Assembly: GCF_031760065.1 (NCBI RefSeq)
Contig: NZ_CP134500.1
Coordinates: forward strand, 3,348,001 to 3,412,000
Source: Streptomyces durocortorensis
GTDB taxonomy: Bacteria; Actinomycetota; Actinomycetes; Streptomycetales; Streptomycetaceae
Direction of reading: 5' to 3'
Length of the DNA: 64,000 nt
Shown here: positions 4,101 through 61,770 of the stretch, in pieces
Layout of the letters: each line of letters opens with the position of its first letter
Position numbering within the stretch: position 1 is the stretch's first letter
Translations under genes and position numbers: made by a program
Notes under the pieces: generated by a model
What the model was told of the DNA's origin: nothing
What the model saw: the letters and a program-made list of their open reading frames with translations, nothing else
Databases searched by the model: none

Positions 4101-4907
4101 ATGGAAATCAGCCTGCTGGGACCGCTCGACGCCGAATCGGCAGGGGCTCGGATCCTGCCCACCGCGGCCAAGCAGCGGCAGTTGCTGGCCCTCCTCGCCC
4201 TGCACGCCAACCGGGGTGTGCCGGTGTCGATGCTCATGGAGGAGATATGGGAGGACGATCCGCCGCGCAGCGCGTCCACCACGCTCCAGACGTACATCCT
4301 CCAGCTGCGCAGACTCATCAGCTCCTCGCTCGGGGACCGCAGCGGCATCGTCGCCAAGGAGATCCTCGTGTACCAGCACGGCGGGTACCAGCTCAGGATG
4401 CTGCCGGGGACGGTCGATGCCCAGGAGTACGACCGGATCGCGGCCCGGGGGCAGGCGGCGTTCGACGCGGGTGACGACGAGCGGGCGGTGGCGGCGTTCC
4501 GCCGGGCGCTCGATCTCTGGCAGGGGCCCGCGCTCGCCGACGTCCGGGCCGGGACGTTCCTGGAAATGGAGCGGGTACGGCTGGAGGAGAGCAGGCTCGG
4601 CATCCTGGAGCGGCGCATCGACGTCGAGCTGAGCATGGGGCGGCACACCGAACTGCTGCCGGAGCTCACCGTTCTGACGGCACGTCACGGACTGCACGAG
4701 GGGCTGCACGCGCTGCGTGTGATCGCGCTCTACCGGGCCGGGCGGCCGTCCGAGGCGCTGTCGGCCTTCAGCACACTGCGGACCCGGCTGAACGAGACCT
4801 TGGGCATCGAGCCCTCTCCCCGGCTCCAGCGGCTCAACCGTGCCGTGCTCGCCGGGGACCAGCTGCTGGAGCAGGGGCGGCGGCTGGGGCAGCAACGCGG
4901 CGTCTGA
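4101..4907 (+). CDS. SARP-family transcriptional activator
   Basis: A 268-residue protein with the SARP layout: an OmpR-like winged helix over about residues 1-95 (start M-E-I-S-L-L-G-P-L, core Q-L-L-A-L-L-A-L-H-A-N) followed by a bacterial transcriptional activation domain (about 100-250, with A-L-D-L-W-Q-G-P-A-L and a final L-G-I-E-P-S-P). SARPs activate antibiotic operons by binding direct repeats at the -35 region. Triple GTCAG repeats lie 49 bp downstream of this gene, before the PKS operon, and at three other promoters, so this protein or the second SARP is the likely activator of the core biosynthetic operons. It has no TTA codon. Confidence 0.88.
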   Translation: MEISLLGPLDAESAGARILPTAAKQRQLLALLALHANRGVPVSMLMEEIWEDDPPRSASTTLQTYILQLRRLISSSLGDRSGIVAKEILVYQHGGYQLRMLPGTVDAQEYDRIAARGQAAFDAGDDERAVAAFRRALDLWQGPALADVRAGTFLEMERVRLEESRLGILERRIDVELSMGRHTELLPELTVLTARHGLHEGLHALRVIALYRAGRPSEALSAFSTLRTRLNETLGIEPSPRLQRLNRAVLAGDQLLEQGRRLGQQRGV

Positions 4908-4955
4908 CCGGCCGGGCCCGGCCGGTCCGCCGCATCCAGGGCTCGGGTACGGGGT

Positions 4956-4982
4956 GTCAGCCTCCGGTCAGTTCCGCGTCAG
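4956..4982 (+). promoter_or_regulatory. SARP-type triple direct repeat, PKS operon promoter
   Basis: GTCAG occurs at 4956, 4967 and 4978, exactly 11 bp apart, which is one helical turn. An A-rich -10-like stretch (AAGAAT) follows at the usual distance, upstream of the ACP gene. The same arrangement occurs at three other promoters in the window, which makes chance unlikely. This is a predicted SARP operator. Confidence 0.75.
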
Positions 4983-5035
4983 GGACACCGAGAAGAATCG
5001 TTTACGTCCAGCGACACACACCACTTGGAGGAACC

Positions 5036-5296
5036 ATGTCCAGCACCGTCACCATCGGCACCGACCAGCGCGCACAGATCAAGGAGATCGTCTGCGACAT
5101 CCTCGAAATCGAGGCCGCGGATGTGACGGACACCAGCCTTTTCAAGGAGAACCACGGCGCCGACTCGCTGGGTGCCATCGAGATCCTCTCCTCGCTGGAG
5201 CGCACCTTCGACATCGAGATCGACCAGGCCGAGCTGACCCGCATGGTCAACCTCGACGGTGTGGTCGCCGTGGTCGAAGAGGGCCTGGCCAAGTAG
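5036..5296 (+). CDS. Acyl carrier protein of the type II PKS
   Basis: An 86-residue acyl carrier protein with the phosphopantetheine site G-A-D-S-L-G-A-I-E near residue 43. The following acidic helix (I-L-S-S-L-E-R-T-F-D-I-E-I) would dock the partner enzymes. It is the first gene of the operon that continues with KS and CLF, so it should carry the growing polyketide chain. The Sfp-type PPTase at 47.4 kb could install the prosthetic group. The start follows a strong ribosome binding site (TTGGAGGAACC). Confidence 0.9.
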   Translation: MSSTVTIGTDQRAQIKEIVCDILEIEAADVTDTSLFKENHGADSLGAIEILSSLERTFDIEIDQAELTRMVNLDGVVAVVEEGLAK

Positions 5297-6626: not shown

Positions 6627-7402
6627 GCGAGATCCTGCCGCGCTTACGCAGGCCGGCCCGATCGGACACGCCCGTGCGGGTGCTGCTGCTGCACGGTCTC
6701 GGAGGCAAGAGCACCGTGTGGGACCGGTTCGTGGACCGGGCCGACGAGACGTTCGAACTGTGGGACGCGGACCTGCCGTGGCGGGCCATGTCCGACAGCG
6801 ACGGATGGGGCTCGCTGCCCGATCCGGCACAGATCCTCGTCGATCTGGTGGGCGACGAGTTCGACGCGGTCGTGGCACATTCGTACGCCGCCAATCTGCT
6901 CACCGAAGCCGTCGCGGCCGGACGGATCGCACCGCGTCCGACCGTGCTGGTGAGCCCCTTCTACCGCGCCAGCACCCGGGAGTTCGACTGGTCGGTGATC
7001 TCGTACTACCTCAATGACTTCCACCGCGTCTTCGAGGAGGCGCTGGAGGTCGGCGAGACGGGCAGGTTCGCGAAGTCGCACCGCGACTGGATGGCGCTGC
7101 GGCTGCGCGACCAGATAGGGCCGTACGGCTGGATGCGGTTCTTCGAGACCTATCTGCGCTCTCCCTTCCTCGATCTCGACGCCGTGCGCTCCCCGCTGCT
7201 CGTGCTGTCGGGGGCGAAGGACATCGCGGCCCGTCCCGAGGACGGCCGCGCGCTCGCCTCGGGCGTTCCGTACGCCCGGTTCGAACTCCTCGACGGATGC
7301 CGCCACTTCCCGATGGTGGAACGGCCCGCGCACGTCACCCGGCTGGTCTGCGACTTCCTCGCCGCCGCCGTATCCCCATCCCCTCGACTGGAGATGTCAT
7401 GA
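6623..7402 (+). CDS. Alpha/beta hydrolase (possible chain-release or editing thioesterase)
   Basis: A 259-residue alpha/beta hydrolase. The oxyanion stretch is L-L-L-H-G-L-G-G, the nucleophile Ser lies in V-V-A-H-S-Y-A-A-N (a GxSxG variant), the acid is Asp in S-G-A-K-D-I, and the base is His in C-R-H-F-P-M-V-E-R-P. It overlaps the KS stop by GTGA and the next gene by ATGA, so it is made in step with the PKS. It may hydrolyse or transfer stalled or finished acyl chains. Codon 8 (6644-6646) is TTA, the rare Leu codon that requires bldA tRNA in Streptomyces, so translation may depend on developmental stage. Confidence 0.78.
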   Translation: MSEILPRLRRPARSDTPVRVLLLHGLGGKSTVWDRFVDRADETFELWDADLPWRAMSDSDGWGSLPDPAQILVDLVGDEFDAVVAHSYAANLLTEAVAAGRIAPRPTVLVSPFYRASTREFDWSVISYYLNDFHRVFEEALEVGETGRFAKSHRDWMALRLRDQIGPYGWMRFFETYLRSPFLDLDAVRSPLLVLSGAKDIAARPEDGRALASGVPYARFELLDGCRHFPMVERPAHVTRLVCDFLAAAVSPSPRLEMS

Positions 7403-8370
7403 GCAACAGCAACCTCGCCAAGGACGGCGCCACGCAGGTCGAGATCCGCCCCCGCTACGAGGGGTCGAACATCTGCACCTGGATCGGCTTCAAGCATGTC
7501 AACTACATGGTGGAAGAGGCTGTCTACGACCACCTGAGGCAGCACGGCCTCCCGGCCGGGAAGCTGTACGAGCGCTTCGGCCTCGGTGTCGACATCACCG
7601 ACATCGACACCAAGATCCTCACCGCGTTCCACATCGACGACCTGGCCACGGCAACCGTGCGCCCGGGTCCCGACAAGGGCGACGGCAAGCGCTTCCTGGT
7701 GGAGTTCACCGTCGAGCGCGAGGGCCAGCCGGTCAAGGCGGTCGCTTCCAAGGTGGCCGTGCAGCTGCGCCTGGACCCGCGCGGCCACTCGGTGGAGGAG
7801 CCGCCCGCGGAGCTCGCGGAGTTCGTCGTGGACCGCCTCGGCGCCGGTGCGGAGCCGGTCGTACTGGAGCCCGGCGCGGACCCGCTGGACCAGCTGACCG
7901 CGGGCACGAACTCCTTCGGCTGGGCCTGGCGGATGCCGTACTTCTACTGCCACTTCACCGAGCGCGTCCAGATGTCCGGCTACCTGCGGCAGATGGAGGA
8001 GGTCGTCGACCTGTTCCTGGAGGACCGGGGCGTCTCCATCAAGACCCTGCTCGACGAGCAGGACTGGATCCCGGTGGTGCCCCACTCCAGGATCACCATC
8101 CTCGACGAGGCCCGGATGGAGGAGACGCTCTACACGGTCTACACCGTCGAGAACGTCTTCAAGCGCTACACCTACACCGCACGCATGGACTGCTACGTAC
8201 TGCGCGACGGTGTGCTGGTGCCGACCGCGACCGGCCGGATCACCCACGGCTGGGCCGTCATCGAGAACCGTCGCGACTGGAGCCTGGTGAACTTCGACGA
8301 CCGGCTCACCGACGCGCTGAACGGCAAGGCGGGTACGGGCACGGCCGCCGGCCGGGGAGCCACGGCGTGA
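7399..8370 (+). CDS. Double-hotdog acyl thioesterase-like protein
   Basis: A 323-residue protein made of two hotdog-like halves. The first includes F-K-H-V-N-Y-M-V-E-E-A and the second Y-C-H-F-T-E-R-V-Q-M-S-G-Y-L-R-Q-M-E-E, resembling the helix regions of 4-hydroxybenzoyl-CoA/YbgC-type thioesterases. In a type II PKS operon it could hydrolyse acyl-ACP, hand the polyene to the NRPS, or edit chain length. The ATG at 7399 overlaps the upstream stop; the next gene starts in its stop codon. A dehydratase-type role cannot be excluded because hotdog folds serve both reactions. Confidence 0.6.
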   Translation: MSNSNLAKDGATQVEIRPRYEGSNICTWIGFKHVNYMVEEAVYDHLRQHGLPAGKLYERFGLGVDITDIDTKILTAFHIDDLATATVRPGPDKGDGKRFLVEFTVEREGQPVKAVASKVAVQLRLDPRGHSVEEPPAELAEFVVDRLGAGAEPVVLEPGADPLDQLTAGTNSFGWAWRMPYFYCHFTERVQMSGYLRQMEEVVDLFLEDRGVSIKTLLDEQDWIPVVPHSRITILDEARMEETLYTVYTVENVFKRYTYTARMDCYVLRDGVLVPTATGRITHGWAVIENRRDWSLVNFDDRLTDALNGKAGTGTAAGRGATA

Positions 8371-9560: not shown

Positions 9561-9962
9561 ATGATGCTTGAATCAGCTCTGGTCCTCGCCGATGTGGACG
9601 TGTATCCCGCGCCCACCGCGGCAGCGCAGGAACCCCAGGCGGCGGTCGTGCGCGGGAGCGTCGTCGTCGATCCCCTCGACCCGGCACTCGCCGGCCACTA
9701 TCCGGGCTTCCCCCTGGTGCCGGGCTTCAGCCTGGTGCAGTACGTGCACGACCTGGTCGCAGGCTCCACGGCACAGCCTCCCGAGCAGCCCGTCGTACTG
9801 GAGAAGGCCCGCTTCCTGAGCCCGGTCCGGCCGGGCGAGCGCATCGACATCGAGGCCCGGATCGACCGGGACGAGACCGGTATCCGCAGCACGGCGGCGG
9901 TGTCCGCCGACGACCGGCCCGCGGCGGAGATCCGGATCCACTATCCCAAGGAGACTTCGTGA
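9561..9962 (+). CDS. FabZ-like dehydratase subunit 1 (His subunit)
   Basis: A 133-residue hotdog protein with a FabZ-type His motif, A-G-H-Y-P-G-F-P-L-V-P-G. The position that should hold the catalytic Glu (after P-G-x-x-x-x) instead reads F-S-L-V-Q-Y-V-H-D, giving Gln. The next gene has the opposite defect, so the two probably form a heterodimer with one composite active site, as described for ApeI/ApeP of aryl polyene synthesis (family knowledge). It would dehydrate 3-hydroxyacyl-ACP to the enoyl form. A ribosome binding site AGGAGAG precedes the ATG; 72 bp separate it from the CLF. Confidence 0.75.
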   Translation: MMLESALVLADVDVYPAPTAAAQEPQAAVVRGSVVVDPLDPALAGHYPGFPLVPGFSLVQYVHDLVAGSTAQPPEQPVVLEKARFLSPVRPGERIDIEARIDRDETGIRSTAAVSADDRPAAEIRIHYPKETS

Positions 9963-10489
9963 GCGGCGTCGCTCAGATCACCTGCGTTCTTCCGCATCGC
10001 CACCCCGCACTGCTGATCGACCGGATCTCCGGGATCGAGCCGGGGGTGGGCGTGCGCACGCAGAAGGCGGTCAGCGTCACCGACCCGGGCTACCGCACGC
10101 TCAGCAACAAGGCGTCCGAGCTGGAGTACGTGTACCCGGTCGGCCGCCTCCTGGAGTCCTGGGCCCAGTCGGCGGTACTTCTCGCCTGCTGGGAGGAGCC
10201 CAATCCGGATGTGCTGGAAGGAAAGGTCGCGCTGCTGGCCGGGGTGAAGAACGCCCGGACGTTCGGCCCGGTCTATCCGGGACAGGTCGTCGACCACGAG
10301 GTCCGGGTGGTCCGCGACCTCGGCGACACCTTGATCATCACTGGTGGCAGCTCGGTGGCGGGCAGGCAGGTGCTGGAGGTCGGACAGCTCGTGCTGGCGT
10401 TGCGCGGCACGGAGGCCCTGACCCCGCAGCCGGAGCCCACGGCCGCCCCGCGGCTGTCATCGCCGACGACAACGGACAAGAGGTCATGA
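9959..10489 (+). CDS. FabZ-like dehydratase subunit 2 (Glu subunit)
   Basis: A 176-residue hotdog protein starting C-V-L-P-H-R-H-P-A-L-L-I-D-R, the classic FabZ N-terminus. Where FabZ has the catalytic His-Phe-Pro-Gly, this protein reads Y-V-Y-P-V-G-R, so the His is lost. It keeps the Glu in R-L-L-E-S-W-A-Q-S-A. It therefore supplies the half active site missing from subunit 1. The gene overlaps subunit 1 by GTGA, which favours equal production. The C-terminal 25 residues are Pro/Thr/Ser-rich and probably disordered. Confidence 0.77.
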   Translation: MSGVAQITCVLPHRHPALLIDRISGIEPGVGVRTQKAVSVTDPGYRTLSNKASELEYVYPVGRLLESWAQSAVLLACWEEPNPDVLEGKVALLAGVKNARTFGPVYPGQVVDHEVRVVRDLGDTLIITGGSSVAGRQVLEVGQLVLALRGTEALTPQPEPTAAPRLSSPTTTDKRS

Positions 10490-11235
10490 TGTCCGCGGAG
10501 AACCGCAGAGTCGCACTGGTCACGGGAGGCTCCCGGGGCATCGGACGCAGCGTGGTGACCCGGCTCGCCGCCGACGGCTACGACGTCGCGTTCTGCTACC
10601 AGTCCAACCGCGAGGCGGCCGACCAGGTCGTCAAGGAGGCCGGCGCCGCGGGAGCCGCGGTACTGGCCCAGCAGGTCGACGTGTCGAGCCAGGCCGAGGT
10701 CCAGGCGTTCGTACGGGCGACCGAGAAGGAGCTCGGGCCGGTCCACGCCGTCGTCTCCTCGGCCGGCATCGTCCGGGACAATCCGCTGATCATGCTCACC
10801 GAGGACGCCTGGCAGGACGTGCTGCGGGTCAATCTGGACGGTACGTACAACGTCTGCCGCGCGGCCGTGTTCGCGATGATGAAGCGACGGGCCGGCACTC
10901 TGGTCACGCTGTCCTCGGTGGCCGGGGTCCACGGCAACGCCACCCAGACGAACTACTCGGCCTCCAAGGCCGGAATCATCGGCTTCTCCAAGGCGCTGGC
11001 CAAGGAGGTCGGCCCGCGCGGCATCCGGGTCAACTCGGTGGCGCCCGGCTTCATCGACACCGACATGACGTCGCAGCTCTCCGAGGACGTCGGCGCCAGG
11101 ATGGCCGACCGCATCCCGCTGGGCCGGTTCGGCCGGCCCGAGGAGGTCGCCGACACCGTCTCCTTCCTCGTGTCGGACCGGGCCTCGTACATCACGGGCC
11201 AGGTGTTCGGCGTCGACGGCGGACTGGTGCTCTGA
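10486..11235 (+). CDS. 3-oxoacyl-ACP reductase (KR), FabG family
   Basis: A 249-residue short-chain dehydrogenase with the NADPH motif T-G-G-S-R-G-I-G and the catalytic Ser-Tyr-Lys set (L-S-S-V-A-G, then N-Y-S-A-S-K). The C-terminus G-Q-V-F-G-V-D-G-G-L-V-L is the FabG signature. It reduces the beta-keto group after each KS/CLF condensation and hands 3-hydroxyacyl-ACP to the dehydratase pair. The start could be 10486 or the second ATG at 10489; both overlap the upstream stop. Confidence 0.9.
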   Translation: MMSAENRRVALVTGGSRGIGRSVVTRLAADGYDVAFCYQSNREAADQVVKEAGAAGAAVLAQQVDVSSQAEVQAFVRATEKELGPVHAVVSSAGIVRDNPLIMLTEDAWQDVLRVNLDGTYNVCRAAVFAMMKRRAGTLVTLSSVAGVHGNATQTNYSASKAGIIGFSKALAKEVGPRGIRVNSVAPGFIDTDMTSQLSEDVGARMADRIPLGRFGRPEEVADTVSFLVSDRASYITGQVFGVDGGLVL

Positions 11236-11945
11236 TGGCCGCCGAGAAGATCCCGCGGTTCTACTTCTCCCTGCGCAGCCCGTACTCCTGGCTCGCCTAC
11301 CGGGAACTCCTCGATCAGTACCCGGACGTGGCGGCCGCCGTGGAATGGCGGCCGTTCTTCGAACCGGACCGGGAGAGCGAACGGATGCTCACCGAGCGGG
11401 GCGGCTCCTTCCCGTACGCCGCCATGTCGCGTGCGAAGCATCTGTACGTCCTCCAGGACGTCGGGCGCATCGCCAAGGAGCGGGGCGTCGACCTGGTGTG
11501 GCCGGTGGACAAGGACCCGGTGTGGGAGATCCCGCATCTGGCCTACCTGGTGGCGCTGCGCGGGGGACAGGGGCCGGAGTTCATCGCTGCCGCGTACCGG
11601 GCGCGCTGGGAAGAGGGACGCAATATCTGCGACCGGTCGGTGATCGCCGGGATCGGGGCCGGACTCGGCCTCGACCCGGCGGAGTTCGCGGGGGCGAGCG
11701 ACGACCCGCGGCTACGGGCCGAGGGGGTGCGGCTGCTCCTGGACATCGACCGGGACGGGGTGTTCGGCGTGCCCTTCTTCGTCCACGGGTTCAGCCGGTT
11801 CTGGGGACTGGACCGGCTGCCCGGCTTCGCCGCTCACCTGCGGGCGCGGACCGCGCCCGCGCGCGGGCTGCCCGAGCCGGTGGCCGGCGCGGTCGGAGCC
11901 GGTAAGCGCGCGACGGACGACGGCCATGCGGGCGGCTGCGGATGA
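11235..11945 (+). CDS. DsbA-family 2-hydroxychromene-2-carboxylate isomerase-like protein
   Basis: A 236-residue DsbA-fold protein. It opens R-F-Y-F-S-L-R-S-P-Y-S-W-L-A-Y, the Ser-Pro-Tyr-x-x-L signature of the HCCA isomerase/kappa-GST group, and has F-G-V-P-F-F-V-H-G near residue 180. Family members isomerise C=C bonds with a thiol cofactor. Inside a polyene PKS operon the obvious hypothesis is E/Z isomerisation of a chain double bond. The region after about residue 208 is Ala/Pro/Arg-rich. The start overlaps the KR stop. Confidence 0.72.
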   Translation: MAAEKIPRFYFSLRSPYSWLAYRELLDQYPDVAAAVEWRPFFEPDRESERMLTERGGSFPYAAMSRAKHLYVLQDVGRIAKERGVDLVWPVDKDPVWEIPHLAYLVALRGGQGPEFIAAAYRARWEEGRNICDRSVIAGIGAGLGLDPAEFAGASDDPRLRAEGVRLLLDIDRDGVFGVPFFVHGFSRFWGLDRLPGFAAHLRARTAPARGLPEPVAGAVGAGKRATDDGHAGGCG

Positions 11946-11982: not shown

Positions 11983-13200
11983 ATGATCGATTCGGATGAG
12001 CGTCTTGGCCTGCTGCGCGGGAAGTTCCAGGAGTGGGGGCACGACTTCCGCGAGCACGCGCTGGAGTTGGACTCCGACCCCGAGGCGATCCGCCGGTACT
12101 TCGATCTGCCCGCCGCCCGGTACCTGGCGACGATGGGCATCCCCGCCGAGTACGGCAACGATCCCGAGCCCATCGGCGGGCACCGCTTCTTCGGCGACAA
12201 GGCCCTGGAACGCGCGGTGATCATGGAGGAGCTGGCGTACGCGGACGCGGGCATGCTGGTCGCGTCGCCGGGTCCGCTGCTCGCCGGTGTGCTGGTCGAC
12301 CTGCTCGGCGACCGCCGGCAGAAGGAGTGGTTCTACGGGCGGATGACCGCCGAGCCGCTGTGGACGTGCTTCGCGCTGACCGAGCCCGACCACGGCTCGG
12401 ACGCCGGCTCCTTGACGACCTCGCTGACCCCGAAGGACGGCGGGTTCGTGCTGAACGGCACCAAGCGGTACGTGGGCAACGCGGCCCGGGCCCAGATCGG
12501 CGTGGTCTTCGCGCGGACCCGGCCGGGCCCGCTGGGCGTGACCGCCGTGCTGACGGAGGGCTCGGCCCCCGGTTTCCACGCCGAGGCGCTGCCCATGATC
12601 GGGCTGCGGGGCGCCCTGATCAGCTCGATCGAGCTCGACGGGGTGGAGATCGCGGAGGACCGGGTGCTCGGCCGCCACCTGTCCCCGAGCCGGCGCGGCA
12701 ACTGGGCGTTCATGCAGACCTTCAACCGGCTGCGCCCCGGGGTGGCCGCCATCGCCCTGGGCATCGCGCGGGCGGCGTACACCTATGTGCTGGCCAACCG
12801 GCGCGCGATCGGCCGCTTCGACCGGGACCGGCTCGACGAGCTGGGCCGCCGCATCGTCGCGACCCGCAAGCTGGTGCACCGCGCGGCCGCCGCGGTGGAC
12901 CTCAACTCCACCAACGGGCACCTGGCCTCGGCCGCGAAGGTGCGGGCCGCCCAGCTCGCCGAGGACGCGACGCTGCTGGCCTGCTCCTTCTTCGGTCCCG
13001 GCGCCCGGCTCGACCACCCGCTCCTCGACAAGCTCACGCGTGACGCCCGCGCGATGGAGTTCCTGGAGGGCACCGGCCATATGCAGCGGCTCAACCTCTT
13101 CCAGGGCTACCTGTCGGGCAGGTTCGACCGGGACGCGCCGTTTCCGGCGGCGCCCGGCCTCCTGGACTCCGGTGCGGCTCAGCCGAGCACCGCTTCCTGA
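11983..13200 (+). CDS. Acyl-CoA dehydrogenase family flavoprotein
   Basis: A 405-residue acyl-CoA dehydrogenase. The FAD/substrate segment is W-T-C-F-A-L-T-E-P-D-H-G-S-D-A, and the C-terminal base region reads A-M-E-F-L-E-G-T-G-H-M-Q-R, matching the Y-E-G-T motif with the catalytic Glu. It is the last gene of the PKS operon and probably oxidises an acyl-ACP/CoA intermediate, for example to add a double bond or desaturate the starter. The ATG at 11983 is preferred because GGGAGCGGGCAG precedes it and the family start follows; an upstream start would add 19 unlikely residues. Its end overlaps the convergent SARP gene by 22 bp. Confidence 0.82.
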   Translation: MIDSDERLGLLRGKFQEWGHDFREHALELDSDPEAIRRYFDLPAARYLATMGIPAEYGNDPEPIGGHRFFGDKALERAVIMEELAYADAGMLVASPGPLLAGVLVDLLGDRRQKEWFYGRMTAEPLWTCFALTEPDHGSDAGSLTTSLTPKDGGFVLNGTKRYVGNAARAQIGVVFARTRPGPLGVTAVLTEGSAPGFHAEALPMIGLRGALISSIELDGVEIAEDRVLGRHLSPSRRGNWAFMQTFNRLRPGVAAIALGIARAAYTYVLANRRAIGRFDRDRLDELGRRIVATRKLVHRAAAAVDLNSTNGHLASAAKVRAAQLAEDATLLACSFFGPGARLDHPLLDKLTRDARAMEFLEGTGHMQRLNLFQGYLSGRFDRDAPFPAAPGLLDSGAAQPSTAS

Positions 13201-13937
13201 GTGAGGATCGACTGGTAGAGCCGGTAGAGGTTGCGGCCGGGATCCAGACCGAGCTCCTTGACGAGCCACTCACGTGTGTGGTGGAAGACGTCGAGGGCCT
13301 CGGTCTGTCTGCCGTTGCGGTAGAGAGCGAGCATCAGCTGCTCGCTGAACCGTTCGCGACCGGGGTGCTGGGCGATCAGCTGGCGCAACTCGGCGATGAC
13401 ACCGCGCTCCTCCCCCATGCCGAGCTTCGCGGCGACCAGGTCCTCCCGGGCGCACAGCCGCTGCTCCTCCAGATGGGCCGCCTCCAGTTGGAGCCGCGGC
13501 CCTTCGTACATTCCGAAGAGGGCCGGTCCGTGCCACAGGTTGAGGGCCGCCTCCAGCAGCCGTACCGCCTCGGCGGGGTCGCTCTCCACCCGCGCCGAGC
13601 CGCGGGCTGCCAGTGACAGGAACCGGTGGGCGTCGACGGCGTCCGGCGGCAGGTCGAGCAGATAGCCGCCGCTGACGGTGCGCAGCAGTTCGTCGCCGCG
13701 CCGACCGGTCAGCTGGGCCAGGATCTTGCGCAGCCTGACGGCGTTCGCCTGGAGCGCGTTGCGCATGTTCTCCAGCTCCCTCTCGCCCCAGAGCTCCTCC
13801 ATGAGCTGCTCGAACAGGACGGGTGTGCCGGAGGGCAGCGAGAGCAGTGCCAGCACGGTACGCACGCGCTTGGACACGACGTGGTGCTGCTCCTGCCCCT
13901 GGATGAGCGTCAGTGTTCCGAGCATCTGAACTTCCAC
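13179..13937 (-). CDS. Second SARP-family transcriptional activator
   Basis: A 252-residue SARP with the winged-helix start M-E-V-Q-M-L-G-T-L-T-L, then R-V-R-T-V-L-A-L-L-S-L, and a BTAD domain (A-L-N-L-W-H-G-P-A-L, then W-L-V-K-E-L-G-L-D-P-G). The GTG at 13937 follows GGGGGAGAGG and keeps the canonical beta-strand start; the ATG at 13925 would cut into it. It lies convergent to the PKS operon. Which promoters each SARP recognises cannot be decided from sequence; the GTCAG triple repeats and the CGCTTAAG motif are both candidates. Confidence 0.87.
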   Translation of the reverse strand: MEVQMLGTLTLIQGQEQHHVVSKRVRTVLALLSLPSGTPVLFEQLMEELWGERELENMRNALQANAVRLRKILAQLTGRRGDELLRTVSGGYLLDLPPDAVDAHRFLSLAARGSARVESDPAEAVRLLEAALNLWHGPALFGMYEGPRLQLEAAHLEEQRLCAREDLVAAKLGMGEERGVIAELRQLIAQHPGRERFSEQLMLALYRNGRQTEALDVFHHTREWLVKELGLDPGRNLYRLYQSILTQEAVLG

Positions 13938-16340: not shown

Positions 16341-16399
16341 CACGACTCCCCCAGTTCTGGGATCACGGGCTCGGGACCTGCTGGACCACTCGAAGCTAG

Positions 16400-22146: not shown

Positions 22147-22169
22147 GCGCCGCAAGCTACGCAGCGCGA

Positions 22170-22196: not shown

Positions 22197-22216
22197 CGTG
22201 GCTCCCCGCGCCGCCG

Positions 22217-22243: not shown

Positions 22244-22299
22244 TGGTGTTGCCGAGCATGGGCGGTGTCCGAATCACCTGCCAGGGAGCGTGGATTGAC

Positions 22300-50878: not shown

Positions 50879-52378
50879 ATGCCAGGAAATACAGCGATCG
50901 AGGTACGGGTCACGACGGCGACGCTGCCCGCGCACGACCCGCTCGAACTCTACGTACGGTTACGCGACGCGCTCCCGGCCGATGATGTCTTCCTCTTCGA
51001 GAACATCAACGGGCCTGGCCAGGACCGGAGTTCGGCCGTGGTCGGGCACGGCAGGCTGTGCGAGATCCGGGTGTACGCGGGCCATGTGGAGATCGACGGC
51101 GTCCCGGCCCTGACCGAGGCCCTCGTGGCGCTCGCCCAGGACGCCGGCCTCTCACCCGGGCTGGAGTTCACCGAACCGGACCGGGTGTGGGAACTGCTGT
51201 CCGCCGCCCAGCGGCTGTTCGCGGTGGAGAGCGACATCCCCGTCACGGAGTACGCCTTCGGCTTCCTGACGACCCTCTCGTACGAGTCCGCCTGGCACAT
51301 GGAGACGCTGCCGCCGCGCACCAAGGCGCCCCGCTGCCCCGACATCACCCTCACCCTCTTCAGGGACACGGTCTGGTACGACCCCGAGTCGGGCTCGGTG
51401 CGTCATCTCACCGCTCGCAGCCGCCACTTCGCGGCCTCGGCCGACGTGGCCTGCGCCACGTTCGCGCGGGACGCGGCCGCCGCCGGGCCCGCCTTCGTTC
51501 CGGAGGCCGACGCCCCCCGGTCGGTCCACGACACCCTGGACCGGGCCACGTTCCTGAAGTGGGCCGAACAGTGCCTGGAGCACATCCGGGTGGGCGACAT
51601 CTACCAGATCCAGATCGGTCACCGCATCGACGTCGAGACCGCCCTCACCCCGGTCGACGTCTACCGGCGGCTGCGCCACCGCAACCCGTCGCCGCACATG
51701 TACCTGCTGCCCCGCGCGGGCCTCACCCCGGACGGAGACGGGGACGGGGCGGCGCTGATCGGTGCCAGCCCCGAGCTGTTCTTCCGCGTCGTGGGCGACG
51801 AGATCGTCATGCGCCCCATCGCGGGCACCGCCCGGCGCGGCGCCGACGAGAGCGAGAACGAGCGGCGCGTCAAGGAGCTGCGGGAGTCCACCAAGGAGCA
51901 GGCCGAGCACATCATGCTGGTCGACCTGTGCCGCAACGACGTCGGCCGGGTCAGCCGTCCCAGCACCCAGCCGGTGGACCGGCTGATGGCCGTGGAGAGC
52001 TTCTCGCACGTGTTCCACCTGGTCTCGACGGTCGCCGGGACGCTGGAGGAGCGCGTCGACACCTGGGAGGCGGTACGTGCCACGTTCCCGGCCGGCACCA
52101 TGACCGGCGCGCCGAAGATACGCGCCATGGAGATCATCGACGGCCTGGAGCGGGAGGCCCGAGGCAACTACGCGGGGGCCGTCGGCCTCGTCGACGTACG
52201 CGGCTGGAGCGAGCTCGCGCTGTGCATCCGCACGGTCGAGTACGACGGCAGGCGGTACACCACCCAGAGTTCGGCCGGTCTGGTCGCCCAGTCGCTGCCC
52301 GAGTCGGAGTGGCTGGAGACCCTGGTGAAGATGGGTGCCGCCTACTGGGCGCTCACCGGTGAGGAGCTGCTGTCATGA
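50879..52378 (+). CDS. trpE: Anthranilate synthase component I
   Basis: A 499-residue chorismate-binding enzyme with the catalytic block M-R-P-I-A-G-T-A-R-R-G, D-L-C-R-N-D-V-G-R-V and T-F-P-A-G-T-M-T-G-A-P-K. With TrpG it converts chorismate and glutamine to anthranilate. The N-terminal feedback motif L-L-E-S of ordinary TrpE is here L-F-E-N, so Trp inhibition may be weakened. Codon 28 (50960-50962) is TTA, a likely bldA checkpoint. The ATG at 50879 follows GGGGAGGA. This is a pathway copy that would boost Trp for the halogenase. Confidence 0.9.
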   Translation: MPGNTAIEVRVTTATLPAHDPLELYVRLRDALPADDVFLFENINGPGQDRSSAVVGHGRLCEIRVYAGHVEIDGVPALTEALVALAQDAGLSPGLEFTEPDRVWELLSAAQRLFAVESDIPVTEYAFGFLTTLSYESAWHMETLPPRTKAPRCPDITLTLFRDTVWYDPESGSVRHLTARSRHFAASADVACATFARDAAAAGPAFVPEADAPRSVHDTLDRATFLKWAEQCLEHIRVGDIYQIQIGHRIDVETALTPVDVYRRLRHRNPSPHMYLLPRAGLTPDGDGDGAALIGASPELFFRVVGDEIVMRPIAGTARRGADESENERRVKELRESTKEQAEHIMLVDLCRNDVGRVSRPSTQPVDRLMAVESFSHVFHLVSTVAGTLEERVDTWEAVRATFPAGTMTGAPKIRAMEIIDGLEREARGNYAGAVGLVDVRGWSELALCIRTVEYDGRRYTTQSSAGLVAQSLPESEWLETLVKMGAAYWALTGEELLS

Positions 52379-52977
52379 AGGTCCTGCTGATCGACGCGTA
52401 CGACAGCTTCGTGCACATCATCGACCAGTACCTGCGCACGCTCGGCGCGCGGACCGAGGTCGTACGCTCCCACACCCGCTCTCCCGACGAACTGGCAGCG
52501 CTGGCTCCGGACGCCCTGGTGCTCGGTCCGGGCCCCGGGCACCCCGCCGCGTCCGGGCATGTGGAACTCGTCCACCGGTTCGCCGGCCGGGTGCCGCTGC
52601 TCGGGGTGTGCCTGGGGCACCAGGCGATCGCGCTGGCGTACGGCGGTCGCGTCGAAGTCGCCCCGCAGGTCATGCACGGGCGGACCAGCACGGTGAGCCA
52701 CGACGGCGTCGCCCTCTTCCAGGGCCTCGGCAACACCCTGGAGGCCACCCGCTACCACTCGCTGATCGTCGCCGAGCCGCTCCCCGACGAGCTGGTCAGC
52801 ACGGCCGTCTCCACCGACCACGGCTATCTGATGGGGCTGCGGCACCGCACGCTGGCGGTCGAAGGCGTGCAGTTCCACCCGGAGTCGGTGACGACCACCG
52901 GCGGCCTTCAGATGATGGAGAACTTCCTGGACAGCGCCCGCCCGGCGAGGAACGGCGTCCCGGTCACCAACGGCTGA
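52375..52977 (+). CDS. trpG: Anthranilate synthase component II (glutamine amidotransferase)
   Basis: A 200-residue class I glutamine amidotransferase with the nucleophile in G-V-C-L-G-H-Q and the His-Glu pair in V-Q-F-H-P-E-S. It releases ammonia from glutamine for TrpE. The gene overlaps trpE by ATGA and ends convergently with the MocR gene, overlapping it by 14 bp. Confidence 0.92.
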   Translation: MKVLLIDAYDSFVHIIDQYLRTLGARTEVVRSHTRSPDELAALAPDALVLGPGPGHPAASGHVELVHRFAGRVPLLGVCLGHQAIALAYGGRVEVAPQVMHGRTSTVSHDGVALFQGLGNTLEATRYHSLIVAEPLPDELVSTAVSTDHGYLMGLRHRTLAVEGVQFHPESVTTTGGLQMMENFLDSARPARNGVPVTNG

Positions 52978-54352
52978 CCTCACCGAGCACCTGGACCGCC
53001 TCGGCCACACCACCGCGCGGCAGGTGGGCGTGGCCGATCACCAGCGCGGGCTCGTCCGGACGCGGCAGGCAGGTGAAGGCCGCGCCGCCGCGCACCAGGA
53101 CCGAGCGGAGCAGTGCCCCGGCCACCAGCGCCCCCTCGTCGGTGTGCCGGGGCAGCCGCACACTGGCGTGCAGCCCGGCGGCGGGGCCGAGCACCTCGGC
53201 CCCGGGCAGATGCCGCACCACCGCCTCCTCCAACGCCTGTCTGCGGCTGTGGGCGACCTCCCTGAGCCGCCGCAGGTGCCGGTCGAGCAGCCCGCTTCGC
53301 AGAAGTTCGGCGAACGCGAGCTGGGTGTACGTGTCCGAGCCGAGGTCGTGCCGGCCGCGGGCGCGCGCGAGCTCGCCGAGGAGCCGCTCCGGGGCCGCCA
53401 GCCAGCCGAGCCGCAGCCCGGGGGCGAGGGTCTTGCTGGCCGTGCCCGCGTACACCACCCGATCGGGCGCCAGGCGCTGCAACGCGATCGGCGCGGCCCC
53501 GCGGTCGTACCAGAGCCCTCCGTCGTAGTCGTCCTCGATCACCCAGCTGTCGGTGGCGCGGGCCCACTCCACCAGTGCCTCGCGGCGCGCCGCGGAGAGC
53601 ACGGCGCCGCTGGGGAACTGGTGCGCGGGAGTGACCAGTACGGCCCGCACTCCGGTCGCGGCCAGCGCGCCGACGTTGATCCCCTCCTCGTCGACGGGCA
53701 CCGGAACCGGCGCGATACCGGCTTCCCTGATGAACTGCCGCTGCCCGGGGTGGCCCGGGTCCTCCACCGCGAGCACGTCGACCCCGAGGCGGGGCAGCGC
53801 GGCGCACAGCAGAGCGAGGGCCTGGGCGAATCCGGAGACCACCATCAGCCGGCCCGCATCGGTGCGCACTCCCCGCAGCCGGCCCGCGTACTGGGCGAGT
53901 TCGGCCCGCAGGGCGAGCTCACCGGCCAGCGGCGGGTAGCCGTGGCCCGTGGTGCCCGCGGACTCCAGCACCCTCGTGTAGCAGGTGAGCCATTCACGGC
54001 GCGGGAAGGCGAGGGTGTTGCGCCCGCCCGTGCGGAGATCCCACCGGATACCCGGTACCCGCCCCTCGTCCAGCAGCGCGGACGGGCCGGGGCGGCCGGG
54101 CAGGCGGCCGTTCACGCGGGTGCCCGAGCCCTGTGCCGCGTCGAGGTAGCCCTCCGCGACCAGTTGCCCGTAAGCCTCCACGACGACGCTGCGTGAGACG
54201 CCCAGGTCGTCGGCGAGGCGGCGGCTGGACGGCAGCCGGGTTCCGGGGTGCAGCGCACCTTCGGCTATTTCCCGCTTGATGAAACTCTGGATCTGCGCGG
54301 TCAGGGATTCACGGGAATCCCTGGCCACGTCGACGGCCATATGCAGGGACAT
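52964..54352 (-). CDS. MocR-family (GntR/aminotransferase fusion) regulator
   Basis: A 462-residue MocR protein: a GntR winged helix over about residues 10-80 ([18 protein letters not shown]) and a fold-I aminotransferase domain with the PLP lysine in [16 protein letters not shown]. These regulators sense PLP or amino compounds. It lies between the trpE-trpG and trpD operons, and matching paired operators lie at both. It is the likely specific controller of tryptophan supply. The ATG at 54352 is followed by the normal helix; the longer open frame extends antisense into trpD. Confidence 0.87.
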
Positions 54353-54475: not shown

Positions 54476-55585
54476 ATGACTACACAGCTGACCGAACAGT
54501 TTCCCGGCCACATGGCCGCTGACGTGGCGGCGCACCCCAGACGCCGTTCCTGGGCGGAAATCATCAACTCGCTGCTGGCCGGACGGAATCTGACCGGCGC
54601 CGAGACCGCCTGGGCGATGGACCAGGTGATGTCGGGACAGGCGGGCGGGGCGCGGCTGGCCGGCCTCCTGGTGGCGCTGCGTGCGAAGGGCGAGACCGTC
54701 GAGGAGGTCGAGGGCCTGGTGCGCGCCATGTACTGGCACGCCGTCCCCCTCGATGTCCCCGGGCCGACCCTGGACATCGTCGGGACCGGCGGTGACGGCT
54801 CGGACAGCCTCAACATCTCCACCATGTCCGCGGTGGTCGCCGCCGCCGCGGGTGCCCGTGTCGTCAAGCACGGCAACCGCTCGGCGTCCTCCGCCTGCGG
54901 CTCGGCCGACGTGCTCGAAGAACTCGGGGTCCGCCTGGACGTACCGGCGTCCGAACTGCCGGCGCTGGTGGACGAGAGCGGCATCGTGTTCTGCTTCGCC
55001 CCGAACTTCCACCCGGCGATGAGGCACGCGGCCGGTCCACGCCGGGAGCTGGGCATCCGTACGGTCTTCAACGCGCTCGGTCCGCTGACCAATCCCGCCT
55101 CCCCCACCGCCCAGGCCGTCGGGGTCGCCGACGCCTCTCTCGCGCCGCTCATCGCGGACGTGCTGGCCCGGCGCGGCGTCTCGGCCCTGGTGTTCCGGGG
55201 TGACGACGGCATGGACGAGCTGACGGTCACCACCACGTCCACCGTCTGGTCGGTGAGCGAAGGCGACGTACGGCGGGAGACCTTCGACCCGCGCGACATC
55301 GGGATACCGCTGTCGCCCGCGGGGGCGCTGCGCGGCGGCGACCGGACCCACAACGCGGGGGCGGCGCGCCGCATCCTGGCGGGCGGGCAGGGCCCGGGCC
55401 GCGACGCCGTCCTGCTGTCCGCCGCCGCAGGCCTGGCGGCCCTGGCCCCGTCGCACGCCCCGATCGCCGAGCGGCTGGCCACGGGCGTCCGGCAGGCGGC
55501 CGCGGCCATCGACTCCGGCGCGGCCGAAGCCACCTTGGAGCGGTGGGCGGCGCTCACCGGGAAGCTGACGGCGAACGCCGGTTGA
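54476..55585 (+). CDS. trpD: Anthranilate phosphoribosyltransferase
   Basis: A 369-residue TrpD with the PRPP motif D-I-V-G-T-G-G-D-G and the substrate motifs [15 protein letters not shown] and [10 protein letters not shown]. It couples anthranilate to PRPP. The ATG at 54476 follows GAGGGGGA; an open frame extends upstream through the operator but has no TrpD sequence. The last 20 residues (about 350-369) are an Ala-rich helix. Confidence 0.92.
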
Positions 55586-60460: not shown

Positions 60461-60488
60461 GCCGGAAACAGATAGGGGGGCTCGGTCA

Positions 60489-61100
60489 GTGGCGATACGC
60501 CTACTGCTCGCCGAGGACATGAACATGGTTCGGGGCGCACTGGTGGCGCTGCTGAATCTGGAGGACGACCTCGAAGTCGTCAGCGAACTGGCGCGAGGCG
60601 ACCAGATCGTGGACGCCGCCCTGGAGCACCGTCCCGACATCGCCATCATCGACATCGACCTGCCGGGCCTCGACGGCCTGAGCGCCGCCGCCCAGCTGCG
60701 CGAGAAGCTGCCGCAGTGCCGCACCCTGATCCTCACCAGTCTCGGCCGCCCGGGCACCCTGCGCCGGGCGCTGACGGCACAGGTGAACGGATACCTGCTC
60801 AAGGACGCCCCGCCCGGGGAACTCGCCCACGCGGTACGCCAGGTGGCGGCCGGGCACCGGGTCATCGACCCGCAGCTGGCCATCGCCGCCTGGGGCGGCG
60901 TCGAGACCCCGCTCACCGAGCGGGAGACCGAGGTGCTGCGGATGGCCGCGGAGGGCTCGGAGGCGGGTGAGATCGCCAGGCTGCTGCATCTGTCACCCGG
61001 CACCGTACGGAACTATCTGACGACGGTCGTGTCCAAGCTGAACGCCCGCAACCGGGTCGACGCAATCCGGATCGCCAGGGACTCGGGCTGGCTGCTCTGA
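60489..61100 (+). CDS. NarL/LuxR-family response regulator (DesR-like)
   Basis: A 203-residue response regulator: receiver domain with phosphoacceptor Asp in A-I-I-D-I-D-L-P-G-L-D-G and Lys in G-Y-L-L-K-D-A, then a LuxR helix-turn-helix, T-E-R-E-T-E-V-L-R-M-A-A, L-S-P-G-T-V-R-N-Y-L. GTG start at 60489. Partner of the adjacent kinase. Target promoters are unknown. Confidence 0.9.
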   Translation: MAIRLLLAEDMNMVRGALVALLNLEDDLEVVSELARGDQIVDAALEHRPDIAIIDIDLPGLDGLSAAAQLREKLPQCRTLILTSLGRPGTLRRALTAQVNGYLLKDAPPGELAHAVRQVAAGHRVIDPQLAIAAWGGVETPLTERETEVLRMAAEGSEAGEIARLLHLSPGTVRNYLTTVVSKLNARNRVDAIRIARDSGWLL

Positions 61101-61143
61101 AGAGTGCTTCCGCGTCAGGGACGCACAGTCGGGGGACTTCCGG

Positions 61144-61770
61144 TCAGGGGACTTCCACCGGCGACGCCATGCCCGCTGCGGCCAGATAGTCGAGGATGCT
61201 CTTCGTCACCGCGTCAGGCAGCGGAAGCGCCGCCGACGCGTCGGCCGGGCTGATCGGCCACGCCAGCATCGCGACCACCCACACCGCCTCGGGGCGGTGC
61301 AGCACCACCCGGTACGCGGACTCCGAGGACTCAAGCGCGAACCCCTTCGCGCACAACGAGAGCGACACGCCGGCCGGCAGCCGCACCGGGCGCCCGGCCG
61401 ACAGCCGCATCAGGGCGAGGGGGGCCGCGCGGGAAACCGGCGACACCGACAGCAGCGGGCCCCCGAGGTCGTCGAGGCCCAGGGTGCGCACGAGAAGATG
61501 GGACAGCCGGGTCAGCAACGGCAGCAGCACCAGATAGGTGCCGACCCGGCTCTCCGTCCGCTCGGTCCCCGCTTCCAGGTTGGCCAGCAGGACCGGGCCC
61601 AGCTCCATTCGGCGCAGTGCCTCACGCTCGACCGGGCCGGGACTCTCGATCCGTTCCGTGCCCCACGGCCCGGTCAGTACCAGCTGGTCGGTGTGCTCGC
61701 CGGGTTCGAGTACGACGTCTTCGCGCAGCGCCCACAGATGGACGGTGCGCTGCCCGGCCGTGATCGACAC
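61144..61770 (-). CDS. SagB N-terminal-domain-like protein without oxidoreductase domain
   Basis: A 208-residue protein starting with a small beta-rich segment (V-H-L-W-A-L-R-E-D-V-V-L-E-P-G) and W-G-T-E-R-I, then a winged-helix-like A-L-R-R-M-E-L-G-P-V. This resembles the N-terminal part that precedes the flavin domain in SagB/ThcOx-type TOMM dehydrogenases. The nitroreductase-fold FMN domain is absent. It could help substrate recognition for the YcaO fusion or be a remnant. It is convergent with the response regulator gene. The assignment is from remembered family features only. Confidence 0.45.
   Translation of the reverse strand: MSITAGQRTVHLWALREDVVLEPGEHTDQLVLTGPWGTERIESPGPVEREALRRMELGPVLLANLEAGTERTESRVGTYLVLLPLLTRLSHLLVRTLGLDDLGGPLLSVSPVSRAAPLALMRLSAGRPVRLPAGVSLSLCAKGFALESSESAYRVVLHRPEAVWVVAMLAWPISPADASAALPLPDAVTKSILDYLAAAGMASPVEVP

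What the first reader, a model, noticed from the sequence alone, without database searches (positions are those of the whole stretch)
4101..61770. An apparently undescribed hybrid locus: amine-started polyene x D-Dap/(Cl)Trp/OH-Asp tripeptide
Seen in sequence: a highly reducing type II PKS set, a BtrJ/BtrK/BtrI-like aminoacyl-ACP cassette, SbnA/SbnB-like Dap genes, a C-A-PCP-E-C-A-PCP-C-(A)-PCP-TE synthetase, a PyrH-like halogenase, a trans Asp-type A protein, a SyrP-like hydroxylase and trpEGDC. Inference: an acylated tripeptide, acyl-D-Dap-(5-Cl)Trp-(3-OH)Asp, whose acyl chain may carry a terminal amine that the TE could use for macrolactamisation. I recognise no known product with this combination.
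Basis: partly seen in the sequence, partly recalled or inferred. Interest (0 to 1): 0.87.

Follow-up and report, generated by a model that had tools for sequence, protein, structure and literature searches.

The report
Gene cluster for polyene-enamide chlorinated lipotripeptide
A gene cluster from a Streptomyces-like bacterium that appears to join a polyene fatty chain, through a rare unsaturated beta-alanine link, to a short peptide containing a chlorinated tryptophan: a more elaborate relative of the enamidonin antibiotics rather than an amine-started polyene.

Summary
Its central inference is probably wrong. The KSIII/BtrJ/BtrK/ACP cassette does not look like a polyene starter. Three relatives carry it beside diaminopropionate (Dap) NRPSs with no KS/CLF hit in 35-47 kb; its KSIII has His where FabH has Asn in 72 of 72 sequences; ACAD-fold partners travel with it; bolagladin uses similar genes to make N-acyl-dehydro-beta-alanine (Dba). 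I read an enamidonin-type pathway: type II PKS polyene, Dba linker, D-Dap, chlorinated Trp, beta-OH-Asp. The halogenase is 87% identical to the 6-halogenase Th-Hal, so 6-Cl is likelier than 5-Cl. Adenylation domain A3 is eroded; a trans Asp-activating protein and a TauD-family enzyme were found in all three relatives seen with an eroded or deleted A3, and not in the fetched stretches of three with an intact Dap-type A3. No such product was seen in the open-access papers searched; MIBiG was not available. The chemistry is inferred.

The parts
4101..4907 (+). SARP-type regulator (SARP1); membership uncertain
   Evidence: BTAD + Trans_reg_C; best hit in S. lycii is the SARP2 gene
5036..5296 (+). 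ACP of the type II PKS
   Evidence: PF00550
5355..6626 (+). ketosynthase KS, highly reducing type II PKS
   Evidence: best PDB match 6kxd, 540 bits
6623..7402 (+). alpha/beta hydrolase (type II thioesterase-like)
   Evidence: PF00561, weak, below cut-off
7399..8370 (+). hot-dog fold protein (4HBT_2), dehydratase or thioesterase of the PKS
   Evidence: PF13279
8367..9488 (+). chain length factor (KS-like, active-site Cys absent by eye)
   Evidence: PF00109; sequence
9561..10489 (+). two small dehydratase-like proteins (9561-9962 and 9959-10489)
   Evidence: first: MaoC/FabA matches below cut-off; second: no Pfam match, FabZ-like motif by eye
10486..11235 (+). ketoreductase
   Evidence: adh_short_C2
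11235..11945 (+). DSBA-family (isomerase-like) protein
   Evidence: PF01323
11983..13200 (+). acyl-CoA dehydrogenase (ACAD), proposed N-acyl-beta-alanyl-ACP desaturase
   Evidence: PF02770/PF00441; member of the seven-gene cassette found whole in 42 of 80 loci
13179..13937 (-). SARP-type regulator (SARP2)
   Evidence: BTAD
14136..16343 (-). MMPL-family exporter
   Evidence: PF03176
16564..17268 (-). hypA: ACAD-like fold without the N-terminal domain; proposed partner subunit of the ACAD
17265..18137 (-). KSIIIb: KAS III-like fold, Cys not conserved (10 of 51)
18140..18424 (-). free ACP (ACP2, BtrI-like) of the aminoacyl cassette
   Evidence: PF00550; D47-S48 in 64 of 64
18492..19781 (-). BtrK-like PLP decarboxylase
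   Evidence: best PDB hits BtrK; lysine of SLKANP 71 of 71
19771..21156 (-). BtrJ-like preATP-grasp aminoacyl-ACP ligase
   Evidence: PF18604; relatives
21217..22155 (-). KSIIIa: acyltransferase-type KAS III, proposed N-acylating enzyme
   Evidence: C117, H238, H269, D274 each 72 of 72
22177..23358 (+). SbnB, 2,3-diaminopropionate biosynthesis
   Evidence: TIGR03944 above cut-off
23376..24389 (+). SbnA, 2,3-diaminopropionate biosynthesis
   Evidence: TIGR03945 above cut-off
24386..35782 (+). NRPS, 3,798 aa: C-A(Dap)-T-E-C-A(Trp-like)-T-C-[A3 defective]-T-TE
33596..34663 (+). A3 remnant inside the NRPS: no YGPTE core and no C-terminal lysine motif matched
35776..36624 (+). ABC-2 permease (start approximate)
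   Evidence: PF01061
37062..38015 (+). DrrA-type ABC ATPase (start approximate)
   Evidence: TIGR01188 above cut-off
38064..39023 (+). HTH (ArsR-like) regulator
   Evidence: HTH matches at or below cut-offs
39573..41120 (-). Na+/H+ exchanger family protein (ORF extent; start not fixed, the ORF overlaps the halogenase gene)
   Evidence: PF00999
40883..42433 (-). FADH2-dependent Trp halogenase, 87% identical to Th-Hal
42635..47313 (-). FtsX-type ABC exporter set (permease, ATPase), Sensor-domain protein, small protein, HTH regulator
   Evidence: syntenic in S. lycii and K. xanthocidica
47395..48078 (-). phosphopantetheinyl transferase
   Evidence: PF01648
48024..49595 (-). trans-acting adenylation protein, code DLTKMGHIG (Asp; meaning of the code recalled)
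49658..50662 (-). TauD/SyrP-like dioxygenase, proposed Asp beta-hydroxylase
   Evidence: PF02668 E 1.1e-46
50879..52977 (+). trpE (50879-52378) and trpG (52375-52977)
   Evidence: Chorismate_bind; trpG from sequence and its homologs
52964..54352 (-). PdxR/MocR-type regulator
   Evidence: NF052282 above cut-off
54476..55585 (+). trpD; another strong copy elsewhere in the genome
55626..56450 (-). trpC; another strong copy elsewhere in the genome

Best explanation
An enamidonin-type lipopeptide pathway with a built-in polyene synthase. Inferred steps: (1) KS/CLF/ACP1/KR/DH build a polyenoyl chain. (2) The BtrJ-like ligase loads an amino dicarboxylic acid, most likely Asp by its side-chain carboxyl, onto free ACP2; the BtrK-like enzyme removes the alpha-carboxylate, giving beta-alanyl-ACP2. 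(3) KSIIIa, perhaps with the degenerate KSIIIb, moves the polyenoyl group onto this amine. (4) The ACAD with its N-truncated partner desaturates it to an N-polyenoyl-dehydro-beta-alanine (Dba) thioester, an enamide conjugated with the polyene. (5) The first C domain acylates Dap (made by SbnA/B); E gives D-Dap; module 2 adds Trp, halogenated probably at C6 and supplied by the extra trp genes; module 3, whose own A domain is dead, receives Asp from the trans-A protein, hydroxylated by the TauD-family enzyme; the TE releases, possibly closing a ring on the free Dap amine. Predicted: polyenoyl-Dba-D-Dap-(6-Cl)Trp-(3-OH)Asp. Shown here: the genes, their conservation, the KSIIIa residues, the adenylation codes, the A3 loss and the halogenase relationship. 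Everything chemical is inferred.
For: All seven of KSIIIa, BtrJ, BtrK, ACP2, KSIIIb, hypA and ACAD occur in 42 of 80 loci; 55 of the 63 with KSIIIa+BtrJ+BtrK+ACP2 also have the ACAD. Three relatives (Streptomyces AC512_CC834, S. nigrescens HEK616, CG 926) have the cassette beside Dap-NRPSs and no KS or CLF hit at E 1e-20 in 35-47 kb; CG 926 reads Dap-Dap-Gly-x, the other two Dap, then a Gly-like and a Phe-like code, which fits D-Dpr, L-Dpr, Gly and L-Phe of the Dba-containing autucedines/olenamidonins (PMC11204786). Streptomyces olivaceus, the autucedine species, has a BtrJ of this type (P0131). KSIIIa: Cys, two His and Asp invariant in 72 of 72, His where FabH has Asn, as in ChlB3. hypA folds like an ACAD lacking its N-terminal domain. 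In bolagladins, deletion of the BtrK-like bolN abolishes the product and deletion of the ACAD gene bolQ gives the beta-Ala analogue (PMC7756342, passages). A3 erosion goes with trans-A and TauD genes in the window and in 3 of 3 relatives seen with eroded or missing A3. Halogenase 448 of 513 identical to 5lv9 Th-Hal, a 6-halogenase per PMC11015028 (passages).
Against: No product, expression or enzyme assay. Bolagladin and AFC-BC11 load Asp with a VinN-type adenylating enzyme, not an ATP-grasp ligase; I have no direct evidence for the BtrJ substrate, and butirosin's system uses Glu (PDB name). N-acylation by a KAS III-like protein is only proposed, for bolagladin and for autucedine; in AFC-BC11 the acyl chain is attached by a fatty acyl-AMP ligase and the KAS III-like AfcL does a later transfer, and the bolagladin KAS III proteins have Ser or Thr in place of Cys, unlike KSIIIa. 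The aut cluster could not be fetched, so the enamidonin link rests on NRPS codes and a species match. 24 of the 42 full-cassette loci show neither CLF nor a C+A ORF within their stretch (several of these end at contig edges or have a TE-like hit), so the cassette may serve other pathways. hypA was not matched to ACAD by hhalign. In CB02056 A3 is full length but has an aberrant code and no YGPTE match, yet no trans-A or TauD gene was found in its 80 kb. PyrH and the 5-halogenase 8fov are still close (662 and 825 bits).
Confidence: 0.64

Rival explanations
1. One reading: the BtrJ/BtrK/ACP cassette makes an aminoacyl starter, KSIII starts the polyene on it, and the terminal amine may close a macrolactam at the TE.
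For: Butirosin-type genes and KSIII beside a polyene PKS; amino acid starters are known for type I macrolactam PKSs (PMC11284099, listing and start of abstract only).
Against: Cassette with Dap-NRPS and no KS/CLF hit in 3 relatives; KSIIIa lacks the FabH Asn in 72 of 72; the ACAD travels with it; S. decoyicus keeps cassette and NRPS but shows no KS or CLF hit.
Confidence: 0.14
2. Same linker logic, but with glutamate: BtrJ/BtrK make 4-aminobutyryl-ACP (as in butirosin), giving an N-polyenoyl-aminobutyryl or aminocrotonyl linker instead of Dba.
For: The closest solved relative of the decarboxylase is BtrK, an L-glutamyl-ACP decarboxylase by its PDB name.
Against: Relatives with the cassette have NRPS codes fitting the Dba-containing enamidonin peptides; BtrK-like BolN is proposed to act on isoaspartyl-ACP (PMC7756342).
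Confidence: 0.15
3. Two neighbouring independent pathways: a polyene acid and a separate lipopeptide that uses ordinary fatty acids.
For: S. decoyicus has cassette, NRPS, halogenase and trans-A without KS/CLF hits, so the peptide part can exist without this PKS.
Against: KS/CLF, cassette and NRPS lie together in S. lycii, K. xanthocidica, CB02056, ASQP_92, Saccharopolyspora and Dactylosporangium.
Confidence: 0.07

Closest known systems
Enamidonin / autucedine / olenamidonin lipopeptides of Streptomyces (PMC11204786)
   Same: Acyl chain joined through dehydro-beta-alanine to a diaminopropionate peptide with a D-Dpr; a 3-oxoacyl-ACP-synthase-like enzyme (AutS/OleH) proposed to join acyl group and Dba-ACP; a BtrJ of this type exists in S. 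olivaceus.
   Different: Known members: fatty acyl chain and D-Dpr, L-Dpr, Gly, L-Phe, no halogen. Here: dedicated polyene type II PKS, three residues, Trp halogenase, trans Asp loading, hydroxylase.
Bolagladins of Burkholderia gladioli (PMC7756342)
   Same: BtrK-like decarboxylase, free ACP, two KAS III-like proteins and an ACAD; N-acyl-Dba starter for an NRPS.
   Different: Asp loaded by VinN-like BolO instead of an ATP-grasp ligase; KAS III proteins with Ser/Thr for Cys; citrate-derived fatty chain; different peptide.
AFC-BC11 (PMC12186527)
   Same: BtrK-type logic from Asp to beta-Ala on one carrier protein, a KAS III-like transferase with Cys/His/Asp, dehydro-beta-alanines.
   Different: Three Dba units, acyl chain attached by a fatty acyl-AMP ligase, no C-domain NRPS.
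Ishigamide highly reducing type II PKS (PDB 6kxd-6kxf)
   Same: Best PDB match of the KS (540 bits, next 374).
   Different: Ishigamide is, as I recall (no call), a polyenoyl-beta-alanine; here the linker is predicted to be desaturated and passed to an NRPS.
Th-Hal and SttH, Trp 6-halogenases
   Same: 87% identical to Th-Hal; SttH is the next best PDB match.
   Different: A 2021 review table gives no natural product for either, and its text puts SttH next to an NRPS cluster (PMC8407142, passages); this locus is a candidate natural setting.

Membership tests
Enamidonin-type acyl-Dba lipopeptide pathway | Genes for amino acid loading on a free ACP, decarboxylation, KAS III-like transfer and ACAD desaturation, with an NRPS | tested here: met
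   Genes present and conserved; chemistry not shown
Enamidonin-type acyl-Dba lipopeptide pathway | Diaminopropionate supply and a first module for D-Dap | tested here: met
   SbnA/B above cut-offs; C-A(DIWEMTADD)-T-E
Enamidonin (the compound itself) | NRPS for D-Dpr, L-Dpr, Gly, L-Phe | tested here: not met
   Codes Dap, Trp-like, trans Asp; three modules
Enamidonin-type acyl-Dba lipopeptide pathway | Dba present in the product | not testable with these tools
   needs isolation or assays
Enamidonin-type acyl-Dba lipopeptide pathway | Homology of all cassette genes to the aut cluster | not tested
   aut cluster not fetchable; only a BtrJ of S. olivaceus seen
Highly reducing type II PKS (ishigamide group) | KS related to Iga11, with CLF, KR and DH | tested here: met
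   the DH assignments are weak
Butirosin-type amino starter for a polyketide | KSIII with the FabH Cys-His-Asn triad for C-C bond formation | tested here: not met
   Asn position is His in 72 of 72
Butirosin-type amino starter for a polyketide | Cassette tied to a PKS | tested here: inconclusive
   It lies beside one here, but with an NRPS and no KS/CLF hit in three relatives
Bolagladin-type Dba pathway | VinN-like enzyme loading Asp on the free ACP | tested here: inconclusive
   An ATP-grasp ligase stands in the cassette; no VinN query was run
Trp 6-halogenase (Th-Hal group) | Close sequence relation to Th-Hal/SttH | tested here: met
   448 of 513 identical; regiochemistry not tested
PyrH-type Trp 5-halogenase | PyrH as the nearest characterised enzyme | tested here: not met
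   PyrH ranks after 5lv9, 5hy5, 6nsd and 8fov

The most novel reading that the evidence does not exclude
A new lipopeptide class in which a type II PKS polyene and a dehydro-beta-alanine enamide form one continuous chromophore capping a D-Dap-6-chloroTrp-beta-hydroxyAsp tripeptide, with a third module that changed from a built-in Dap adenylation domain to a trans-loaded, hydroxylated Asp: intact, eroded and deleted A3 all survive in living relatives. It would also give Th-Hal-type 6-halogenases a natural pathway.
Probability: 0.5. Interest if true: 0.72.

Novelty: new variant of a known kind. Interest (0 to 1): 0.6.

Why it matters
Few Dba-containing natural products are reported (enamidonins, bolagladins, AFC-BC11 in the papers seen), and the olenamidonins inhibit enterococci (PMC11204786). 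This locus would join Dba chemistry to a dedicated polyene synthase and a halogenated tryptophan. The relatives show in one gene how an NRPS module can lose its own adenylation domain and be served in trans with another amino acid, a natural design for module swapping. It also gives a testable home for Th-Hal-like 6-halogenases.

Tried and rejected
Amine as polyene starter: demoted. hypA as ACAD relative by sequence: hhalign gave no match (probability near 0, E 0.85) and Pfam only E 0.061; kept only because of the predicted fold. YcaO/TOMM module as part of the cluster: linked in the window, in TRM64462 (peptide and the start of a YcaO directly after trpD) and in Amycolatopsis RYN_118 (same contig); but the YcaO match is on other contigs in S. 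rimosus, ASQP_92, S. lycii and K. xanthocidica (draft assemblies), about 0.5 Mb away in Dactylosporangium, and there is none at E 1e-40 in 7 of the 14 searched; left out. Sciscionella: its joined tract had a 1.7-kb gap; it is one of the 16 tracts counted but carries no conclusion. A first regex reading of adenylation codes was unreliable at several positions and was replaced by aligned columns, whose positions I assigned by motif from recalled GrsA numbering. Foldseek and VIA-align lists do not exclude other folds. Paper searches: (all 10); no polyene-Dba-Dap-ClTrp product was seen. The autucedine and kutzneridine papers are cited in PMC12843350 (passages) but were not read; MIBiG was not available. 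Solanimycin (PMC10204066, passages) was looked at and set aside: its residues are dehydro-alpha-alanine.
Full report
WHAT IS THERE. The window lies at 3,348,001-3,412,000 of a 7,296,298-base single-contig genome, Streptomyces-like by its nearest protein matches. Gene models were fixed from ORFs, codon-position GC and translations and named with Pfam and NCBIfam. From left to right: SARP regulator; type II PKS block (ACP, KS, hydrolase, hot-dog protein, CLF, two small dehydratase-like proteins, KR, DSBA-family protein); ACAD; second SARP; MMPL exporter; then on the minus strand hypA, KSIIIb, ACP2, BtrK-like, BtrJ-like and KSIIIa; then SbnB, SbnA and the 3,798-aa NRPS; ABC exporter; HTH regulator; Na/H exchanger; Trp halogenase; FtsX-type exporter set; PPTase; stand-alone A protein; TauD-family protein; trpE, trpG, a PdxR-type regulator, trpD and trpC. 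The stretch 56,640-61,100, inside its range, is something else: a 56-aa peptide, a YcaO protein that passes the cut-offs of TIGR03604 and TIGR03882, and, by sequence, a histidine kinase and a response regulator.

CONSERVATION. BtrJ-like relatives were found in 8 of 394 genomes of the class at E 1e-20 (one of them only 28% identical) and, with the S. olivaceus protein as query, in 28 of 392 genomes of the genus at E 1e-60; both counts include the own genome. A pattern scan of the genome collection gave 91 loci that encode a relative, of which the best 80 were kept. In these 80 plus the S. decoyicus plasmid (81 loci; up to 10 kb each side, 20 kb for the plasmid) window genes were found by tblastn at half the query length or more: BtrJ 81, KSIIIa 72, BtrK 70, ACP2 64, ACAD 58, KSIIIb 54, hypA 52, SbnA 26, SbnB 21, CLF 19, KS 17. 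Of the 80, 42 have all seven of KSIIIa, BtrJ, BtrK, ACP2, KSIIIb, hypA and ACAD; 63 have KSIIIa, BtrJ, BtrK and ACP2, and 55 of those also the ACAD. In S. lycii the best hits of 38 genes from ACP1 to trpD have the same order and orientation; K. xanthocidica keeps the order up to the TauD gene, without a Na/H-exchanger hit.

WHY THE AMINE IS A LINKER. First, context: AC512_CC834, S. nigrescens HEK616 and CG 926 carry the cassette next to Dap-NRPSs, and no KS or CLF hit lies in the 35-47 kb fetched, so the cassette does not need a type II PKS beside it. Their adenylation codes read Dap, Dap, Gly, unassigned (CG 926), and Dap, then Gly-like, then Phe-like (AC512 and HEK616; the second Dap module is cut by the contig end in AC512 and has no recognisable A domain in HEK616). 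[quoted passage not shown] Streptomyces olivaceus, the autucedine species, has a BtrJ of this type, 68% identical to that of HEK616 (P0131); I could not fetch the aut cluster itself. Second, the enzyme: in 72 KSIIIa sequences (the window's and 71 loci's) Cys117, His238, His269 and Asp274 never vary. In the alignments the FabH Asn position is His269, and Asp274 aligns with an Asp of ChlB3. AfcL, a KAS III-like transferase with a Cys/His/Asp triad, handles beta-Ala chains in AFC-BC11 synthesis, although there the acyl chain itself is attached by a fatty acyl-AMP ligase (PMC12186527, passages); in bolagladin and autucedine a KAS III-like enzyme is proposed for that step, and the bolagladin ones have Ser or Thr for Cys. 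KSIIIb has a KAS III-like fold (AF2 pLDDT 91.2; Foldseek), but its Cys occurs in only 10 of 51, so it is probably a non-catalytic partner. Third, the desaturase: with the ACAD travels hypA, which has no clear family by sequence but a confident ACAD-like fold without the N-terminal domain; complexes of two ACAD-type chains (ChsE4-ChsE5, Tcur3481-3483, Fic32-33, by entry titles) are among its matches. In bolagladin biosynthesis, deletion of the ACAD gene bolQ turned Dba into beta-Ala, and deletion of the BtrK-like bolN abolished the product (PMC7756342, passages).

THE PEPTIDE. Aligned codes: A1 DIWEMTADD, an acidic diamino-acid code beside SbnA/B, hence Dap, followed by an E domain, hence D-Dap; A2 DAWGAAGVA, a roomy pocket; stand-alone A DLTKMGHIG, the Asp code (meanings of codes are recalled, not from a call). 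Trp at A2 is supported by the halogenase and by the trp genes, which duplicate strong trpC and trpD copies elsewhere in the genome. The third A domain lacks its YGPTE core and C-terminal motif. The distance from the C3 HHxxxDG motif to the third carrier motif is 874, 854 and 870 residues where A3 is intact and reads Dap (Saccharopolyspora, Dactylosporangium, Saccharothrix), 716 and 720 in the window and S. lycii, and 384 in K. xanthocidica, where A3 is gone; in S. decoyicus A3 matches the window's remnant at 53% and has no core motif. In the 16 tracts, a close TauD protein (70% or more) and a close trans-A (66% or more) occur together in 4: S. lycii, K. xanthocidica, S. decoyicus and one contig of TRM64462. 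The first three have an eroded or missing A3; for the fourth the NRPS was not seen. One tract, a different S. rimosus cluster, has a 35% TauD match; the other 11 have none, among them the three with an intact A3 (39 kb fetched each). One case does not fit simply: CB02056 has a full-length A3 with an aberrant code (IDTTISFAV) and no YGPTE match, and no trans-A or TauD gene in its 80 kb. The trans-A therefore most likely serves module 3 in the window's lineage.

THE HALOGENASE. Best solved match is Th-Hal 5lv9 (1,080 bits; 448 of 513 identical), then SttH 5hy5, 6nsd, the 5-halogenase 8fov, and PyrH (662 bits). Th-Hal and SttH are 6-halogenases (PMC11015028, passages). The Phe49 linked to 5-selectivity in PMC12894115 (passages) is present in the window enzyme, but also in Th-Hal and SttH (alignments), so it does not decide the position. 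A review lists no pathway for Th-Hal or SttH, and puts SttH next to an NRPS cluster (PMC8407142, passages). Enzymes at 79-88% identity lie on the same contig as the cassette in S. lycii, K. xanthocidica, the S. decoyicus plasmid, CB02056 and ASQP_92, and at 87% on a separate TRM64462 contig with trans-A, TauD and trp genes. Saccharothrix and Dactylosporangium relatives have a distant Trp halogenase (37-38%; 41-42%) in the cassette's neighbourhood; 7 of the 16 tracts have none.

LIMITS. No chemistry is shown. BtrJ substrate, polyene length, ring closure, timing of hydroxylation and halogenation, and Cl position are open. The literature was open-access PMC only and MIBiG was not available, so 'no known product' means none seen.

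Noticed in passing
window 56640-59101: A 56-aa peptide (MNDIT...[17 protein letters not shown]) followed directly by a YcaO/TOMM cyclodehydratase; a similar peptide follows trpD directly in Streptomyces sp. TRM64462 (L116), and a YcaO lies about 7 kb from KSIIIa on the same contig in Amycolatopsis RYN_118. Why this RiPP module neighbours the lipopeptide cluster in different genera is unexplained.
   Followed up: partly
L028, L032, L035, L036, L041, L044, L045, L056, L065: Nine Amycolatopsis loci with type II KS/CLF, SbnB/SbnA, BtrJ and ABC exporter hits but no BtrK match at half length: a BtrJ without the decarboxylase, perhaps a different aminoacyl pathway (gene order seen for L028 and L032).
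   Followed up: no
L058, L059, L060, L061, L067, L091: Full seven-gene cassette with neither type II CLF nor a C+A NRPS ORF in the fetched stretch (24 of 42 full-cassette loci in all, some of them cut or with a TE-like hit): the cassette may serve other products.
   Followed up: no
L017 (plasmid NZ_CP108348.1, Streptomyces decoyicus): The same cassette, NRPS with eroded A3, halogenase, trans-A and TauD gene on a 235-kb linear plasmid, without KS/CLF hits but with adenylate-forming and enoyl-CoA hydratase genes nearby: a natural swap of the acyl source, and a route for horizontal transfer.
   Followed up: partly
L111-L113, L128 (one contig of the genome of L027, S. rimosus): A separate NRPS cluster with a 64% Trp halogenase, its own trpE/G/D/C and a PdxR-like regulator: the halogenase + trp + PdxR set recurs outside this family.
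   Followed up: no
L075 and L119 (S. nigrescens HEK616): First NRPS reads C-A-T-C/E-C/E-T with no recognisable second A domain, although two Dap residues are expected; the first A may load both carriers.
   Followed up: no
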